The position numbers and the translations under genes are program-made. 55,190 bases of DNA. It comes from Campylobacteraceae bacterium. GTDB lineage: Bacteria > Campylobacterota > Campylobacteria > Campylobacterales > Arcobacteraceae. The DNA is taken from NCBI GenBank assembly GCA_013215945.1, contig JABSOM010000018.1:1-55190 (forward strand). The letters run 5' to 3'. Below, one piece after another: positions 2,999-15,154 of the stretch. The stretch's first letter is position 1, and the number at the start of each line of letters is the position of its first letter. A model generated the notes under the pieces. That model was not told the origin of the DNA, did no database searches, and saw only the letters and a list, made by a program, of their open reading frames with translations.

Positions 2999-4804
2999 AT
3001 GAAAAAAACAAACTCCATAACTTTTAAGCTTAGTACTGTTTTTATTAGTATTCTTTTACTCTCTTTTGTCATTATTATGTCTTATAACTATTATAAATCT
3101 TCTTTGCATTCATATGCGTATATTAATAAAGTTACGGATGAGTTGGCTTTAAAAACTATTTCACGCACAAGTGCTTATTTAAATGATGCAAATACGCCTT
3201 TGAGGGTAATCTCAAGCATCACTCCTTCTGAAATTTTTTCTAATTATGAAAATACTTTATCTGTAATGAATGAGTATATTCATACCAATAAACATTTAGC
3301 AAGTATTTTTATTGGAGACAAAAATGGGAATTTTTTTCAAGTTAGAAGAGAACCTGCTTTTGCACTTAGAATTATAAAAAAACAAGATGATGTGTTTATG
3401 GATACTTGGACATATGATAATAATAAAATTGTAAAAAAACTAGCTACTTATGATGCAAGAACACGTACTTGGTATAAAGATGCAAAAAAGAATAAAATTT
3501 CTATATCTGAACCTTATTTATTTTCTTCGACGGGCAAACTTGGAATTACTGTTTATTATGCTTTTTATGAGAATGAAAAAAAATCATATGTGGTCGCAAG
3601 CGATATTTCATTGAGCTCTTTAAGCTCTTTTATTAAAAATGAGGCCAATAGTATTGGAGGGGTGATTTCTTTAATTAGTTCAATAGGCGATATTATAGTT
3701 TCTTCTGAGGACGTTATTAATAAAAACTCTTTATTAAAAAATATAAATAAACTTGATTTTAATAATGTAACTATTCAAAGTGCAAAAGCTTATTTAAATG
3801 GGAATAAAACAGGTCGTTTTAAAGATAAAGAAGGCGATACCTATGTATATATTGGAAAAAACTTTAATCCCAGTGAAAATTTATCCTGGAATATTGTTAT
3901 TTCAGTTCCAGAGGGTAAAATCTTAGAAGGTGTAAATAATACTTTTTTTGAAACACTTATTATTTCTTTTATTATCTTAATTTTATTTTTATTAATCGCT
4001 TTAAAAATATCTCAGGGTTTATCAAAACCAATAATACGTTTATCTGAAGATATTAAAAACCTAGAACAACTGGATTTAGATATCTTAATTGATAACAGTT
4101 CTACCATTACAGAGATTAATACTGCACAGAATTCTCTTATTTCTTTACGACTTGGTTTAAAATCATTTTCAAAATATATGCCTTCGGATTTGGTAAAAAT
4201 TCTAATTAAAAGTAAAAAAGAGATTAAAATTGGTGGAAGTGAAAAAAACTTAGCCATTATGTTTACTGATATTGAAAGTTTTACAACAATATCTGAAAAA
4301 CTGCTAACAAAAGATTTGACGCAGTATTTATCAGAATATTTTGATGTAATGGAAAAAGTCATCTCAAGTCACGAAGGTACTATTGATAAATATATTGGTG
4401 ATGCTGTTATGGCTTTTTGGGGTGCACCTCTTGATATTGAAGATCCTATTGAAAAAGCAGTAAGATCATCTCTTATTTTACAAGAAAAACTTTTAGTTTT
4501 TAATGATGAATTATTTAAAAAAGTAGGAGTTAGGTTTAATACCAGAATTGGTGTTCATTATGGTAAAACACTTGTTGGTAATATTGGAAGTAATGACAGA
4601 ATGAATTATACAATAATAGGTGACAACGTAAATATAGCAGCAAGACTTGAGAATATAAATAAAGTCTATAAAACTAAAATTATAATTTCCAATGAAGTTT
4701 ATGAAAAAATTGCTTCAAATTTTGATATTGTTTATTTGGATGAGTTGGCGTTGAAAGGCAAAAGCATTTCAACAAAAATTTATGAAGTAAGAGGTCTTTT
4801 ATAA
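2999..4804 (+). CDS. Cache-domain class III adenylate/guanylate cyclase (first of tandem pair)
   Basis: 601 aa membrane-bound nucleotidyl cyclase. TM1 (about 10-30), a periplasmic dCache-type sensor (about 35-300, with the RTRTWYKDA motif near 154-162), TM2 (about 318-336), a HAMP-like linker and a class III catalytic domain (about 400-600). Catalytic residues all look present: metal-binding D424 (FTDIE) and D468 (KYIGD), purine-selecting K464 and T538 (NYTIIGD), transition-state N545 and R549 (VNIAAR). The Lys/Thr pair suggests class IIIb adenylate cyclase. Shine-Dalgarno AAAGG sits 7 nt before the ATG. The next gene is a paralogue starting on the base after this stop codon, so the two form one transcript. 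The sensed ligand is unknown. Confidence 0.9.
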   Translation: MKKTNSITFKLSTVFISILLLSFVIIMSYNYYKSSLHSYAYINKVTDELALKTISRTSAYLNDANTPLRVISSITPSEIFSNYENTLSVMNEYIHTNKHLASIFIGDKNGNFFQVRREPAFALRIIKKQDDVFMDTWTYDNNKIVKKLATYDARTRTWYKDAKKNKISISEPYLFSSTGKLGITVYYAFYENEKKSYVVASDISLSSLSSFIKNEANSIGGVISLISSIGDIIVSSEDVINKNSLLKNINKLDFNNVTIQSAKAYLNGNKTGRFKDKEGDTYVYIGKNFNPSENLSWNIVISVPEGKILEGVNNTFFETLIISFIILILFLLIALKISQGLSKPIIRLSEDIKNLEQLDLDILIDNSSTITEINTAQNSLISLRLGLKSFSKYMPSDLVKILIKSKKEIKIGGSEKNLAIMFTDIESFTTISEKLLTKDLTQYLSEYFDVMEKVISSHEGTIDKYIGDAVMAFWGAPLDIEDPIEKAVRSSLILQEKLLVFNDELFKKVGVRFNTRIGVHYGKTLVGNIGSNDRMNYTIIGDNVNIAARLENINKVYKTKIIISNEVYEKIASNFDIVYLDELALKGKSISTKIYEVRGLL

Positions 4805-6625
4805 TTGAAAACTAACAATAATAAAAGACCCTTGATAGTTATTTTAAGCCTTGTTTTTGGAAGTTTAATATTCTTGTCTTTTATTATTATAATGTCCTAC
4901 AATTATTACAAAACATCAAAACAATCACATTCTTATATAAATAATGTACAAAATGACTTAGCCTCTAAAACAATTTTTAAAGTAATGGATTATTTAAATG
5001 AAGGGAACAGTGCTTTAAAAATTATTTCAGGGCTTACCCCTTCTTTAATGTTTGATAATTATGAAAATATACATAAAGTAATGGAAGAATATATTAAAGA
5101 TAAAAAACATTTATCAAGTATTTTTATTGCAGATGAAAAAGCGAACTTTATACAAGTCAGAAAAGAACCACATTTTGAAACACGGATTATTAAAAAAATT
5201 AATAATGTCCGCTATGAAACATGGATACGTGATAATAAGGCTAGTTTAAAGGAGCTAAGTAAATACAATCCAACTCTTAGACCCTGGTATAAAAAAGCAC
5301 TAAAAAATCAATTTATTATTTCAAAACCTTATATCTTTGAATCAACCAAAAAACTGGGAATTACTGTTTCTTATGCAAAATATGAAAATAAGAAAAAAGT
5401 ATTAGTAAGCGCTGTTGATATTTCTTTGAATAATTTACTTATTTTTGTAAAAAAAGAAGCCCAAAAGATTAAGGGTATTGTATTAATTATGTCTTCAAGT
5501 GGAGATATTATTGTTTCTTCACAAAATCAAGGAAAAAAAAACACTTCTTTAAATACTATTTATGACTTAGAGAAGAATAATATTGTTGCACTTAGTGCTA
5601 AAGCATATCTAAGAAACAATACTACTATTTTAGATAAGGAAGGTGAAAAATATATTTATGTAGGGAAACAATTCTCTCCTAGTAAAAATTTGTCTTGGAA
5701 TATTCTTATTATTGTTCCTGAAGGTATTGTTTTAAAAGGTATTAAAGAATCCTTTTTTGAAGGTTTGTTTATCTCTATTTTTATGCTTTTATTGTTTATT
5801 CTTATATTAAAAAAGTTTTTAAACAGTATTTCTTTGCCTATAACAAAACTTACTAAAGATATAGAAAGATTAGTTGATTTAGATTTAAAACATGCTATTG
5901 ATAATAATTCAAATATATACGAAATAAAAGTCGCACAAGATGCTTTGATAGCTCTAAAAATTGGACTAAACTCTTTTTCAAAATATGTTCCTAATAATTT
6001 GGTGAAAATTCTTGTAAAAAGCAAAAAAGAAATTAAGATAGGTGGAGAAGAAAAACAATTGGCAATTATGTTTACTGATATAGAAGGTTTTACCTCTATT
6101 AGTGAAGAAATATCCAATCAAGATTTAACCAAATATTTATCGCAATATTTTCACTTAATGCAAGAAATAATTTCACGCAATGAAGGAACTATTGATAAAT
6201 ATATAGGTGATGCCGTAATGGCTTTTTGGGGAGCACCCCTTGATATTAAAAATCCAATACATAAAGCAGTTTTATCTGCTCTTGAAATACAAAAAGTATT
6301 AGAAATTTTTAATACTAACTTATTTAAGAATTTTGGTTTTTCTTTTAAAACCAGAATAGGGCTTCATTATGGAAAAACAATTGTTGGAAACATTGGCTCT
6401 AGTAAAAGAATGAATTATACAATAATTGGTGACAGTGTTAATGTGGCTGCTAGGCTTGAAAATATTAATAAGGTATACCAAACTAAGATTATTGTTTCTT
6501 CGCAGGTTTTTGAAGCGATTAAAGATGATTTCACTTGTAAATACTTGGACAGTATAGAATTAAAAGGAAAATCTGTTGCAACTAAAATATATGAAGTAAA
6601 ATCTTTGAACACTGCGTTAAACTAA
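4805..6625 (+). CDS. Cache-domain class III adenylate/guanylate cyclase (second of tandem pair)
   Basis: 606 aa, same architecture as the upstream gene: TM1 (about 9-31), dCache-type sensor with LRPWYKKA near 159-166, TM2 (about 318-338), HAMP-like linker, class III cyclase domain. Metal ligands D425 and D469, K465 and the NYTIIGDSVNVAARLE segment are conserved, so it should be active, probably as adenylate cyclase. By eye the catalytic halves are much more alike than the sensor halves, which fits duplication followed by change of ligand. The start is TTG immediately after the previous TAA, about 10 nt after an AGAGG; later ATG codons fall inside TM1. Ends in a bidirectional terminator. Confidence 0.88.
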   Translation: MKTNNNKRPLIVILSLVFGSLIFLSFIIIMSYNYYKTSKQSHSYINNVQNDLASKTIFKVMDYLNEGNSALKIISGLTPSLMFDNYENIHKVMEEYIKDKKHLSSIFIADEKANFIQVRKEPHFETRIIKKINNVRYETWIRDNKASLKELSKYNPTLRPWYKKALKNQFIISKPYIFESTKKLGITVSYAKYENKKKVLVSAVDISLNNLLIFVKKEAQKIKGIVLIMSSSGDIIVSSQNQGKKNTSLNTIYDLEKNNIVALSAKAYLRNNTTILDKEGEKYIYVGKQFSPSKNLSWNILIIVPEGIVLKGIKESFFEGLFISIFMLLLFILILKKFLNSISLPITKLTKDIERLVDLDLKHAIDNNSNIYEIKVAQDALIALKIGLNSFSKYVPNNLVKILVKSKKEIKIGGEEKQLAIMFTDIEGFTSISEEISNQDLTKYLSQYFHLMQEIISRNEGTIDKYIGDAVMAFWGAPLDIKNPIHKAVLSALEIQKVLEIFNTNLFKNFGFSFKTRIGLHYGKTIVGNIGSSKRMNYTIIGDSVNVAARLENINKVYQTKIIVSSQVFEAIKDDFTCKYLDSIELKGKSVATKIYEVKSLNTALN

Positions 6626-12233: not shown

Positions 12234-12250
12234 GACTTTTTATTTTTTTC
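12219..12250. terminator. Perfect palindromic bidirectional terminator
   Basis: A 26-bp perfect palindrome (12219-12244, half-site AATAAAAAGTCTT) followed by T runs in both directions. The stop codons of the DUF5661 gene (+) and the helicase gene (-) are both inside it. Confidence 0.85.
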
Positions 12251-13523
12251 TAAATGTTCTGTTTGCATCTCTTTTTGTAGTTTTCTTAGTTTTGCTGACC
12301 TTTTTTTCATAAGGGTTTTTTACTTTTCTCAAACCTTTTTTCTCACTTAAAGACAGACGTTTAAAACGAGCTACTCTGTGTTCTTTTTGTGTTAATTCAA
12401 AACCTTCTAACTGCTCTTTTTGAGTATCTAGTTTTAAATCTTTTTGAATTTGTGCATATAGTTTATATTCTTTTACACATAATAAAGAAATTTCACAGCC
12501 CTTGTTTCCAGCTCGTCCTGTTCTTCCAATTCTGTGAGTAAAATCATCTGTTGTTTCAGGAAGAGAATAATTAACTACTATAGGCAGTTGCTCTATATCT
12601 ATTCCACGTGCTGCTATATCTGTAGCAATTAATACTCTGATTTCACCTGCTTTAAATTTCCTTAGTGCTCTTGCACGTGCGGGTTGTTTAATATCTCCAT
12701 GAATACATAAAGAATTTAAACCATCTAAGTTTAAATGTTCTGTTAGGGTATCTGCCATCTTTTTTGTATTTACAAATACTAAAAGTTGTTGATAATTTTT
12801 AGAACCAATTAAATACGATAACATTTCTTTTTTTTGATCGCTGTCAACACTGTAAGCTAAATGATCAATTAACGCAACCGTTTCTCTTCTGTTTGTTATT
12901 TCAACAACAGTAGGTGTTCGCAAAAATTTTTTCGCAAGTTGTTTTACATTTTGTGAAATCGTTGCTGAGAACATCATGATTTGTCTTTGAGGGGATACAA
13001 GTGATAAAACTTCTTCTATATCTTTTAAGAAACCAAGTTCAAGCATAGTATCCGCTTCATCAACAACAATCATATTCACACTGGATAAATTTAAACCATT
13101 ATTCGTAATATGATCTTTTAGTCTTCCTGTGGTTGCAACGATTATATCTACACCTTTATTTAGTTTTGTTTCTTGTATTTTATTAGAAACACCACCAAAA
13201 ATCTCTGCATACTTAATATTTAGATGTCTTGAATAATGCGATACCGCTTTTGAAATTTGTTTTGCTAATTCTCTTGTTGGTACTAAAATTACACATCTAA
13301 GAACTTTTGGTTCATTGTTTTGTGTTTTTTTAAGTTTTTCTAAAATAGGTAAAACAAAAGCAGCAGTTTTACCTGTACCACTTTTTGCAGCACCTATTAA
13401 ATCAGAACCTTTTAACAGTACTGGAATTGTTTTTGTCTGTATTTCTGTTGGGGTTTCGTACCCTTCTTCTTCTAATGCTTTTAAAATCTCATCACATAGT
13501 ATTATTGAACCAAATGTTTTGAT
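12240..13523 (-). CDS. DEAD-box RNA helicase, apparent AUC start codon
   Basis: 427 aa if started at ATC 13523-13521. Motifs: Q motif GYETPTEIQ (21-29), Walker A AAKSGTGKT (45-53), Ia PTREL (82-86), Ib TTGRL, II DEAD (155-158), III SAT, and VI HRIGRTGRAG, then a basic tail. This is a complete RhlE/DbpA-type helicase. The first ordinary start codon in frame is a GTG at codon 149 (13079), after motif Ib, which would remove the ATPase half. Upstream the frame is open to a stop at 13592-13590 with no ATG, GTG or TTG. The ATC is 6 nt after AAAAGGA (13536-13530) and gives the usual helicase N-terminus (about 20 residues before the Q motif). The out-of-frame ATG at 13570 lies inside the -10 box. Mutated or non-canonical start, or a base error, are all possible. 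Confidence 0.85.
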   Translation of the reverse strand: MKTFGSIILCDEILKALEEEGYETPTEIQTKTIPVLLKGSDLIGAAKSGTGKTAAFVLPILEKLKKTQNNEPKVLRCVILVPTRELAKQISKAVSHYSRHLNIKYAEIFGGVSNKIQETKLNKGVDIIVATTGRLKDHITNNGLNLSSVNMIVVDEADTMLELGFLKDIEEVLSLVSPQRQIMMFSATISQNVKQLAKKFLRTPTVVEITNRRETVALIDHLAYSVDSDQKKEMLSYLIGSKNYQQLLVFVNTKKMADTLTEHLNLDGLNSLCIHGDIKQPARARALRKFKAGEIRVLIATDIAARGIDIEQLPIVVNYSLPETTDDFTHRIGRTGRAGNKGCEISLLCVKEYKLYAQIQKDLKLDTQKEQLEGFELTQKEHRVARFKRLSLSEKKGLRKVKNPYEKKVSKTKKTTKRDANRTFRKK

Positions 13524-13568
13524 AGTTTTTCCTTTTACGCCAATATTATATTCTTGGTATTTTTTTGC

Positions 13569-13574
13569 ATTATA
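13569..13574 (-). promoter_or_regulatory. -10 box for the helicase gene
   Basis: TATAAT in the extended context TATGCTATAAT on the minus strand. It places transcription start near 13562 and rules out the overlapping ATG (13570-13568) as a start codon. Confidence 0.65.
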
Positions 13575-13626
13575 GCATAAAGTTAAGAGCTACGATTTAT
13601 TATGATTATATTTTCAAAAGAAAGGC

Positions 13627-13632
13627 TATAAT
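13627..13632 (+). promoter_or_regulatory. -10 box for the small lipoprotein gene
   Basis: GGCTATAAT, 14 nt before the Shine-Dalgarno AAGGA at 13646-13650. No clear -35 box. Confidence 0.6.
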
Positions 13633-13656
13633 ACTTTTTTAATTCAAGGAATAAAT

Positions 13657-13845
13657 ATTAAAACAGTTACATTATATATACTATGTTTATTAATTTCTAT
13701 AAGCTTTAATGCTTGTATTGTGGGGGATGTAGTTGCTTTACCTTTTAGAGTTACTGGGGCTGTAATAAATACTGTAGCTCCAGATATTGTAGGTGATAGT
13801 ATAAGTGGCGTGGGTGAAACATTAGATACAATAATTCCTTTTTAG
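13657..13845 (+). CDS. NF038104-type small lipoprotein, apparent AUU start
   Basis: 62 aa. Residues 20-62 (C-I-V-G-D-V-V-A-L-P-F onward, through VTGAVINTVAPDIVGDSISG to a terminal IIPF) match the small lipoprotein family NF038104 as I remember it. A hydrophobic signal peptide (about 4-18) ends at C20, the presumed lipidated Cys, although the lipobox (SFNAC) is poor at -3. No ATG, GTG or TTG precedes the signal peptide in frame; ATT at 13657 is 6 nt after AAGGA and gives an M-K-T start. Expected in the periplasm, attached to a membrane. Function unknown. A promoter and terminator frame it as a single-gene unit. Confidence 0.8.
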   Translation: MKTVTLYILCLLISISFNACIVGDVVALPFRVTGAVINTVAPDIVGDSISGVGETLDTIIPF

Positions 13846-13859
13846 GGAATTATTGTTTT
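13831..13859 (+). terminator. Terminator after the lipoprotein gene
   Basis: An 8-bp stem (13831-13838 ATAATTCC with 13846-13853 GGAATTAT), a 7-nt loop, then TGTTTTA. It covers the last codons of the lipoprotein gene. Confidence 0.6.
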
Positions 13860-14172
13860 AACCCAGTTCATCGTTTAAATAATCATCAATAATTTGAACC
13901 AAAGTGTCAAATTTTTTCTCACCATCTTTATTGAAAAGAACAATTTCTTCTCCATGATCGTCTTGAATAAAATGTTCATTTTGTTTTATTTTTAAATACA
14001 ATTCTTGAATATCTTCTGGAGAATCATCTTTGTTAAATAAAAACCAATTAACAGTTGTTTCTTCAAAACGTAATAAGCCATATGTTTTTTCTTCATCAAT
14101 ATAATCTTGAATGGTTCCATTTTCAAACCTGGCACCTATAACTATATCATCATCGTTCATTAACATTTCCAT
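13858..14172 (-). CDS. Small acidic protein, unknown
   Basis: 104 aa from the ATG at 14172, chosen because AAAAGG lies 6 nt before it; a TTG at 14178 would add two residues. Soluble, strongly acidic, no membrane segment and no cysteine motif. I do not recognise a family. It stands alone on the minus strand between the lipoprotein and radical SAM genes, and uses an ordinary ATG, unlike those two neighbours. Confidence 0.7.
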   Translation of the reverse strand: MEMLMNDDDIVIGARFENGTIQDYIDEEKTYGLLRFEETTVNWFLFNKDDSPEDIQELYLKIKQNEHFIQDDHGEEIVLFNKDGEKKFDTLVQIIDDYLNDELG

Positions 14173-14247
14173 TTTCAACCTTTTCTTAGCACATAGTTTT
14201 GCTCTTTGTATCTTTGCAATAATAACAATTTTTCCTTAAAAATCAGC

Positions 14248-14253
14248 TATAAT
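14248..14253 (+). promoter_or_regulatory. -10 box for the radical SAM gene
   Basis: CAGCTATAAT on the + strand, about 20 nt before the Shine-Dalgarno AAGAAGG (14270-14275 region) of the radical SAM gene. Confidence 0.6.
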
Positions 14254-14281
14254 CGCATTTATCATAAAAAGAAGGTTTGAT

Positions 14282-15154
14282 ATTAAAAAGTTTAAAAAAA
14301 TACATGTAGAAATCACCAATATATGCAATCTTAAATGCAGTTTTTGTCCTCCTCCCACGCTGCCCAGTTTAAGTATGAAACTTGAAGAATTTGAGAAAAT
14401 TAATGAAGACGCACGAAAATACACTAAAGAATTGGCATACCATGTTTTAGGTGATCCTTTGGTTCTTAGTAATTTAAAACAGTATTTAGATATCTCTTTT
14501 AGACATGACCTTAAAATTAATATTACAACGACTGCCATTAATATTAAAGAAAAAAACTATGAAGCTTTAATGCATGAAACATTAAAACAAGTTAATTTTT
14601 CTATTAATTCATACAATGCTAATTCTCACAAAAAAACCTTGGATGAGTACTTAGACCCTATTTTTGATTTTATATTATATGCGGTAAAACATAAACAAAA
14701 TCATTTTATTAATTTACGTATTTGGAATTTAGATGATACTCAAAGTGCTAGAGATTTTAATCAAAAAGTATTTGATAAAGCGAATAAAGTTTTTGCCTGT
14801 AATATCTCTTTAGATGATATTTATTTAAATACTCCTAAAAATATACGAATAGCGCCTAAGGTATTTTTTAATTTTGATGAGTATTTTGATTGGCCTTCTT
14901 TAAAGAATGATTTTGTAAGTACTAAGGGCTTTTGTTACGGTTTGGATTCTCACTTTTCTATTTTAAGTTCAGGGGTAGTTACTCCTTGTTGTTTAGATAA
15001 AGATGGCGTTATTAATTTAGGAAATATTAAAAATGAGTCTTTGGAAAATATTTTAGCTACAAGCAGGGTGAAAAATATTCAAAAAGGTTTTAGAGAAAAA
15101 AATGTGGTTGAAGAGTTATGCCAAAAATGCTCTTATCGTACACGTTTTGATTAA
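14282..15154 (+). CDS. Radical SAM/SPASM domain protein, apparent AUU start
   Basis: 290 aa if started at ATT 14282. The radical SAM cluster motif C15-x3-C19-x2-C22 (ICNLKCSFCPP) lies in the first 25 residues, and a SPASM-type Cys set closes the protein (FCYG, TPCCLD, ELCQKC). The family binds one SAM-cleaving and usually one auxiliary 4Fe-4S cluster; such proteins modify peptides, proteins or small molecules. The first ATG in frame (14375) lies after the CxxxCxxC motif and would destroy the enzyme. ATT is 6 nt after AAGAAGG and yields M-K-K-F-K-K, a normal N-terminus. No precursor peptide gene is seen beside it, so the substrate is unknown. Confidence 0.85.
   Translation: MKKFKKIHVEITNICNLKCSFCPPPTLPSLSMKLEEFEKINEDARKYTKELAYHVLGDPLVLSNLKQYLDISFRHDLKINITTTAINIKEKNYEALMHETLKQVNFSINSYNANSHKKTLDEYLDPIFDFILYAVKHKQNHFINLRIWNLDDTQSARDFNQKVFDKANKVFACNISLDDIYLNTPKNIRIAPKVFFNFDEYFDWPSLKNDFVSTKGFCYGLDSHFSILSSGVVTPCCLDKDGVINLGNIKNESLENILATSRVKNIQKGFREKNVVEELCQKCSYRTRFD

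What the first reader, a model, noticed from the sequence alone, without database searches (positions are those of the whole stretch)
13521..14284. Three AUC/AUU starts within 0.8 kb: a local cluster
Finding three genes in a row that lack AUG at the exact third base (AUC, AUU, AUU), each with intact promoter and Shine-Dalgarno, is far above what is expected; the gene lying between them (13858-14172) uses ATG. Options: local polishing errors, a shared expression-lowering adaptation, or relaxed IF3 discrimination in this lineage (GUG and UUG starts are also frequent in the window).
Basis: inference. Interest (0 to 1): 0.6.

Follow-up and report, generated by a model that had tools for sequence, protein, structure and literature searches.

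The report
Conserved non-AUG start codons in Arcobacteraceae
Two neighbouring genes, an RNA helicase and a radical SAM enzyme, start at AUU, AUC or AUA instead of AUG across dozens of species of this bacterial family, so the odd starts are not sequencing errors but look like a conserved translational brake.

Summary
A DEAD-box helicase (ATC, 13523 -), a DUF6726 lipoprotein (ATT, 13657 +) and a radical SAM/SPASM enzyme (ATT, 14282 +) have a Shine-Dalgarno, a TATAAT box and no usable ATG/GTG/TTG. The helicase has none for 148 codons downstream; the next ATG in the radical SAM gene lies beyond its CxxxCxxC motif. Polishing errors are excluded. The helicase start is AUH (AUU/AUC/AUA) in all 46 relatives read without presupposing a codon, with an almost invariant SD and at least 7 third-base changes, none to G. 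The radical SAM start is AUH in 52 of 52 genomes found with the start codon left free; a few basal genera use ATG or GTG. The lipoprotein ATT is confined to this genus. Genome-wide, AUH starts are rare (roughly 0.5-1% of genes) and IF3 looks ordinary, so IF3 discrimination is not relaxed. In 403 orthologue pairs only these two genes and a YhiN-like FAD enzyme share AUH starts with an SD in both genomes. The best reading is a conserved, gene-specific translational throttle of the infC/pcnB/ccpN kind, probably IF3-sensitive. The "cluster" is partly an inherited neighbourhood. Translation itself was not tested.

The parts
12240..13523 (-). DEAD-box RNA helicase (RhlE-like, 427 aa), start codon ATC
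   Evidence: PF00270 and PF00271; best NCBIfam model is RhlE (428 bits, below its cut-off of 743); ATC start conserved as AUH in all readable orthologues
13521..13523 (-). AUC start codon of the helicase
   Evidence: no canonical in-frame codon upstream to the stop, next one 148 codons downstream
13530..13534 (-). Shine-Dalgarno AAGGA of the helicase, 6 nt before ATC
   Evidence: almost invariant in 42 orthologues at the same spacing
13545..13574 (-). two TATAAT boxes (13545-13550, 13569-13574) upstream of the helicase
   Evidence: a TATAAT-like box lies about 36 nt before the start in most orthologues
13657..13845 (+). DUF6726 small lipoprotein (62 aa), start codon ATT (13657-13659)
   Evidence: PF20487; ATT in this genome and in G001 only, ATG or TTG in more distant relatives; TATAAT 13627-13632, AAGGA 13646-13650
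13858..14172 (-). small gene with an ordinary ATG start, between the AUH genes
   Evidence: no family match
14248..14253 (+). TATAAT box of the radical SAM gene
14272..14275 (+). Shine-Dalgarno core AAGG of the radical SAM gene, 6 nt before ATT
14282..15154 (+). radical SAM/SPASM protein (290 aa), start codon ATT (14282-14284)
   Evidence: PF04055 and PF13186; AUH in 52 of 52 family genomes found with the start codon left free

Best explanation
In Arcobacteraceae the RhlE-like helicase gene and the radical SAM gene carry an ancient translational throttle: a well-placed Shine-Dalgarno (SD) in a short 5' UTR recruits the 30S subunit, but the start codon is AUU, AUC or AUA, a triplet lacking the 3'-G that IF3 accepts. 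Initiation by fMet-tRNA is therefore inefficient and should depend on the IF3 level and on 30S quality. Shown here: conserved AUH start, SD, spacing, a TATAAT box at a fairly fixed distance, and absence of any other usable start. Inferred: translation really begins at AUH with fMet, yield is low, and IF3 sets it. What is under selection looks like the property 'not NUG', because the third base moves among U, C and A but never becomes G. The lipoprotein acquired the same kind of start later, in this genus.
For: Helicase: ATT 15, ATA 15, ATC 12 and no ATG/GTG/TTG in 42 loci; 39 of 42 have no canonical in-frame codon back to the upstream stop, and in five only one codon separates that stop from AUH. 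A further genome and three MAG loci agree. At least 7 third-base changes on the tree. SD AAGGA near-invariant, base -1 always T or C against 41-50% at ATG starts. DEAD-box paralogues in the same genomes use ATG/TTG with an SD. Radical SAM: 52/52 AUH with the start codon unspecified. Genome-wide: only 3 of 403 orthologue pairs are AUH/AUH with an SD in both; among genes with no canonical start before coding sequence, 11 of 27 SD-supported codons are AUH against about 11% expected (p about 1.5e-4). Mechanism known elsewhere: IF3 discriminates against triplets without 3'-G (PMC4611024); conserved AUU/AUA starts with strong SDs in S. aureus give about 10-30% of AUG yield (PMC13009471).
Against: No expression, ribosome profiling or N-terminal proteomics was available. 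Base -1 and SD conservation could partly reflect shared ancestry. Some basal genera use ATG or GTG for the radical SAM gene, and the YhiN-like gene has ATG in several genera, so for those genes the throttle is dispensable. Sensitivity to IF3 is extrapolated from E. coli and S. aureus. In about half of the radical SAM genes the preceding codon is also AUH, so the exact start may be one codon earlier there.
Confidence: 0.8

Rival explanations
1. IF3/ribosome-state sensor (a stronger form of the best explanation): the AUH starts do not just lower expression but couple it to ribosome supply. When IF3 is short relative to 30S, or immature 30S with poor start-codon discrimination accumulate, AUH genes are translated more, making helicase (and a YhiN-like rRNA enzyme) that help ribosome maturation: a feedback loop like infC but moved to maturation factors.
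For: IF3 sensitivity of non-3'-G triplets is established (PMC4611024). The helicase is closest to RhlE, and RhlE is found in 50S precursors in E. coli (PMC11194073). The third gene with a shared AUH start is the paralogue nearest E. coli YhiN; that YhiN is RdsA, the 23S rRNA D2449 synthase, is from memory (RdsA itself: PMC12501074). rnpA also seems to start at ATT. infC itself uses UUG.
Against: The radical SAM/SPASM protein has no known ribosome role and the lipoprotein none at all; the gene set is tiny, so the functional theme may be chance; RhlE membership is by similarity only, below the NCBIfam cut-off.
Confidence: 0.25
2. Static low-dose starts (a weaker form of the best explanation): AUH is simply a very weak start fixed where little protein is needed, without any regulatory input.
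For: Genus-specific AUH in a small lipoprotein and scattered AUH candidates in unrelated genes fit simple weak starts; pcnB of E. coli is a known case of expression limited by AUU (PMC1780047).
Against: GUG or UUG, also weaker than AUG and common here, never replace AUH in the helicase; the SD stays strong, odd if only a low dose were wanted.
Confidence: 0.5
3. Sequencing or polishing errors at three ATG codons.
For: Three rare events close together in one contig.
Against: The same starts occur in independent assemblies of dozens of species, in three different codons.
Confidence: 0.01
4. The AUH codon is an internal Ile codon and translation starts upstream at a canonical codon.
For: Three of 42 helicase loci have a canonical codon 12-16 codons upstream.
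Against: 39 of 42 have none before the in-frame stop, five have a single codon between stop and AUH; the SD sits directly before AUH; ATC is far commoner at this site (12/42) than among Ile codons (6-9%).
Confidence: 0.02

Closest known systems
infC of E. coli (AUU) and S. aureus (AUA)
   Same: AUH start behind an SD, IF3-discriminated class of codons
   Different: infC codes for IF3 itself; here infC uses UUG across the order and the AUH genes are a helicase and a radical SAM enzyme
pcnB of E. coli (AUU)
   Same: AUH start limits expression of an RNA-metabolism gene
   Different: unrelated gene (poly(A) polymerase); here all three AUH codons interchange across a family
ccpN (AUA) and cvfC1 (AUU) of Staphylococcus (PMC13009471)
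   Same: AUH start plus strong SD, conserved across species; about 10% of AUG yield, up to 30% for ccpN in rich medium
   Different: different genes and phylum; experimentally shown there, only inferred here
AUU-started lepA of Borrelia burgdorferi and Bacillus licheniformis (PMC1780047)
   Same: full-length protein only if AUU is the start
   Different: isolated cases, no family-wide conservation reported in the passage read

Membership tests
Genes with a conserved AUH (AUU/AUC/AUA) start as translational attenuator | No usable ATG/GTG/TTG; AUH at the start of the conserved protein | tested here: met
Genes with a conserved AUH (AUU/AUC/AUA) start as translational attenuator | SD at initiation distance from AUH | tested here: met
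Genes with a conserved AUH (AUU/AUC/AUA) start as translational attenuator | Non-canonical start conserved across species | tested here: met
   helicase 46/46 unbiased reads, radical SAM 52/52 of pattern matches; lipoprotein only within the genus
Genes with a conserved AUH (AUU/AUC/AUA) start as translational attenuator | AUH lowers protein yield relative to AUG | not testable with these tools
   needs a reporter
IF3-autoregulated infC-type control | The controlled gene encodes IF3 | tested here: not met
   the genes are a helicase, a radical SAM enzyme and a lipoprotein; infC starts with TTG
IF3-autoregulated infC-type control | Expression responds to IF3 level | not testable with these tools
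   needs a reporter at several IF3 levels
RhlE RNA helicase | NCBIfam RhlE model above curated cut-off | tested here: not met
   428 bits against 743; RhlE-like only
Lineage with relaxed start-codon discrimination | AUH starts common genome-wide | tested here: not met
   AUH is a small minority; ATG, TTG and GTG account for about 94% (G000) and 90% (G013) of fitted starts, the rest spread over many codons as noise

The most novel reading that the evidence does not exclude
An IF3-sensing regulon moved off infC: a small set of AUH-started genes (RhlE-like helicase, YhiN-like rRNA enzyme, rnpA, radical SAM enzyme) raises its output when IF3 is limiting or 30S subunits are immature, giving feedback control of ribosome/RNA maturation through the start codon alone, helped by a conserved pyrimidine at -1.
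Probability: 0.15. Interest if true: 0.85.

Novelty: new member of a known kind. Interest (0 to 1): 0.55.

Why it matters
Very few bacterial genes are known to start at AUU, AUC or AUA by conserved design. Here two genes keep such starts across dozens of species while the third base drifts among U, C and A, which points to the codon class that IF3 rejects as the thing under selection. That makes the evolutionary use of IF3 discrimination testable outside infC. It also matters for annotation: a gene caller limited to ATG/GTG/TTG would cut 148 codons off this helicase and the catalytic motif off the radical SAM enzyme.

Tried and rejected
Assembly error (refuted by relatives). Upstream canonical start or internal Ile codon (refuted by in-frame stops). 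Genome-wide relaxed initiation (AUH rare, IF3 ordinary). infC with AUU in this lineage (it is TTG). An initiator tRNA matching AUH: only ordinary CAU tRNA-Met was found in the stretches held, but the tRNA search covered about 40-60% of two genomes, and use of all three AUH codons argues against a single matching tRNA. A structured 5' UTR was not tested by folding; where the TATAAT box lies about 36 nt before the start, the implied UTR is only about 24 nt. The single-protein genome-contig scan returned few distant relatives. My first codon-only EM listing missed both the helicase and the radical SAM gene of this genome because hexamer scores are weak at N-termini; the orthologue test recovered both. 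The annotated start codons of relatives could not be checked (genomes unnamed).

Full report
OBSERVATION. The window is one whole contig (G000:C18) of a low-GC Arcobacteraceae genome (28 contigs; its nearest named relative in the scans is Arcobacter sp. NORP36). The three starts are as reported: ATC at 13523 on the minus strand, ATT at 13657 and ATT at 14282 on the plus strand. In each gene no ATG, GTG or TTG lies in frame between the upstream stop and the proposed start. The next canonical codon would remove 148, 21 or 31 codons: in the helicase the Q, Walker A and DEAD-box motifs, in the lipoprotein the signal peptide and lipobox cysteine, in the radical SAM protein CNLKCSFC. The helicase segment upstream of its first canonical codon has very strong coding signal (log-likelihood 71). 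TATAAT boxes and SDs are present. The fourth gene, between them (13858-14172), starts with ATG.

IDENTITY. The helicase matches DEAD (PF00270) and Helicase_C (PF00271), and RhlE best among NCBIfam models but below its cut-off. The 290-aa protein matches Radical_SAM and SPASM without a named family. The 62-aa protein matches DUF6726.

NOT AN ERROR. Orthologues were fetched and their starts read without presupposing the codon. Helicase: 42 loci give ATT 15, ATA 15, ATC 12 and no canonical start; 39 of 42 have no canonical in-frame codon upstream before the stop, and five have one codon only between the stop and AUH. A 43rd genome and three MAG loci (L216-L218) also have AUH. A scan that presupposed AUH adds 13 further genomes; these do not count as unbiased. 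The equivalent scan with ATG/GTG/TTG finds what look, from the matched N-termini, like paralogous DEAD-box helicases, which act as a control. Radical SAM: a scan leaving the start codon free found 52 genomes in 10 genera, and all 52 have AUH (ATA 31, ATT 19, ATC 2). Outside that group G004 has ATC, while G006 and G009 use ATG and G016 GTG. Lipoprotein: ATT in G000 and G001; ATG or TTG elsewhere.

HOW RARE. Fitted start codons in 1.255 Mb of this genome are about 81% ATG, 8% TTG and 5% GTG; in 1.2 Mb of G013 about 74%, 12% and 4%. In 403 reciprocal orthologue pairs, three have AUH/AUH with an SD in both genomes: helicase, radical SAM and a TIGR00275/HI0933 FAD enzyme. A strict test for genes lacking any canonical start before coding sequence found 27 genes with an SD-supported codon; 11 are AUH where about 3 are expected (p about 1.5e-4). 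I count about nine AUH candidates in 1,163 genes of G000; by a rough calculation of mine, three within five genes would be expected about 0.003 times by chance, but this is post hoc.

THE CLUSTER. Helicase and radical SAM genes are old neighbours: divergent and about 0.1 kb apart in G017, G061 and G062, 2.3 kb apart in G012, 5.7 kb in genus g13, 0.76 kb here; in other genera they are far apart and both still have AUH. So the cluster is an inherited neighbourhood of two AUH genes plus one genus-specific event, not one local cause.

ANATOMY. Across 42 helicase loci only a few features are strongly conserved before the start: AAGGA at -11 to -7, and a pyrimidine at -1 (T 36, C 6; background 41-50%). 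Most loci have a TATAAT-like box about 36 nt before the start, which implies (by inference) a 5' UTR of about 24 nt. There are at least seven changes of the third base on the protein tree, none to G. ATC is 12 of 42 here but 6-9% of Ile codons, which argues against an ordinary internal Ile codon. Base -1 is T in 42 of 52 radical SAM genes. A possible reason, from general knowledge and untested, is pairing of U(-1) with A37 of the initiator tRNA, compensating for the lost third pair.

MECHANISM. IF3 treats triplets ending in G as canonical and discriminates against AUU, AUC and AUA (PMC4611024). E. coli uses AUU for infC and pcnB (PMC9410913, PMC1780047). In S. aureus, infC (AUA), cvfC1 (AUU) and ccpN (AUA) have strong SDs; reporters for cvfC1, ccpN and citZ give about 10% of AUG yield, up to 30% for ccpN in rich medium (PMC13009471). 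The Arcobacteraceae genes match this layout, so I infer a translational throttle, probably IF3-sensitive. Whether it is merely a weak start or a sensor of ribosome state cannot be told from sequence. The functional lean towards RNA and ribosome maturation is suggestive only: RhlE occurs in 50S precursors (PMC11194073); the AUH-started FAD enzyme is the paralogue nearest E. coli YhiN (226 bits against 161 and 145), which I recall, without having found it in the library, to be RdsA, the D2449 synthase (RdsA: PMC12501074); and rnpA seems to start at ATT inside the end of rpmH.

RELAXED DISCRIMINATION. Not supported: AUH starts are rare, IF3 aligns normally with solved bacterial IF3s, and infC starts with TTG across the order.

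LITERATURE. The open library holds nothing found on AUH starts in Arcobacter or on a bacterial RNA helicase with AUU. The A. butzleri genome paper predicted ORFs with ATG, GTG and TTG only (PMC2147049). Subscription papers are not covered.

VERDICT. A real, conserved and rare feature; new genes and a new lineage for a known kind of control; mechanism plausible, untested here.

Noticed in passing
G000:C7:11712 (L223:1501), G013:C1:660320 (L234:1501): YhiN-like FAD enzyme (TIGR00275) starts at AUH in about eight family genomes (ATA/ATT/ATC behind an SD) but at ATG in several other genera.
   Followed up: partly
G000:C1 minus strand and G013:C1 near 689277 (rpmH-rnpA junction): rnpA has no canonical start near its N-terminus; the best candidate is ATT inside the last codons of rpmH, where ATG would put a stop (TGA) into the rpmH frame.
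   Followed up: partly
infC loci L083-L112: infC starts with TTG in nearly all genomes of the order, so the classical AUU autocontrol of IF3 does not seem to exist here.
   Followed up: yes
helicase orthologues, base before the start codon: Base -1 is always T or C (42 of 42) and T in 42 of 52 radical SAM genes, against 31-47% T at ATG starts; possible extra pairing with the initiator tRNA.
   Followed up: partly
G013:C1:144216 (-), G000:C3:44104 (-), G000:C5:6433 (+), G000:C2:102826 (+): Further single-genome AUH candidates with good SDs (a lipoprotein, a 180-aa protein, an efflux-type membrane protein, a flavodoxin-fold-like protein).
   Followed up: no
window 2999-4804 and 4805-6625: Two adjacent, similar membrane sensor/cyclase genes, apparently a tandem duplication; the second starts with TTG directly after the first ends.
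   Followed up: no
G000:C14:28369-29601 and G001:C17:28896-30110: A paralogous DEAD-box helicase whose match contains one in-frame TAA in both genomes of this genus; pseudogene or match overrunning the gene end.
   Followed up: no
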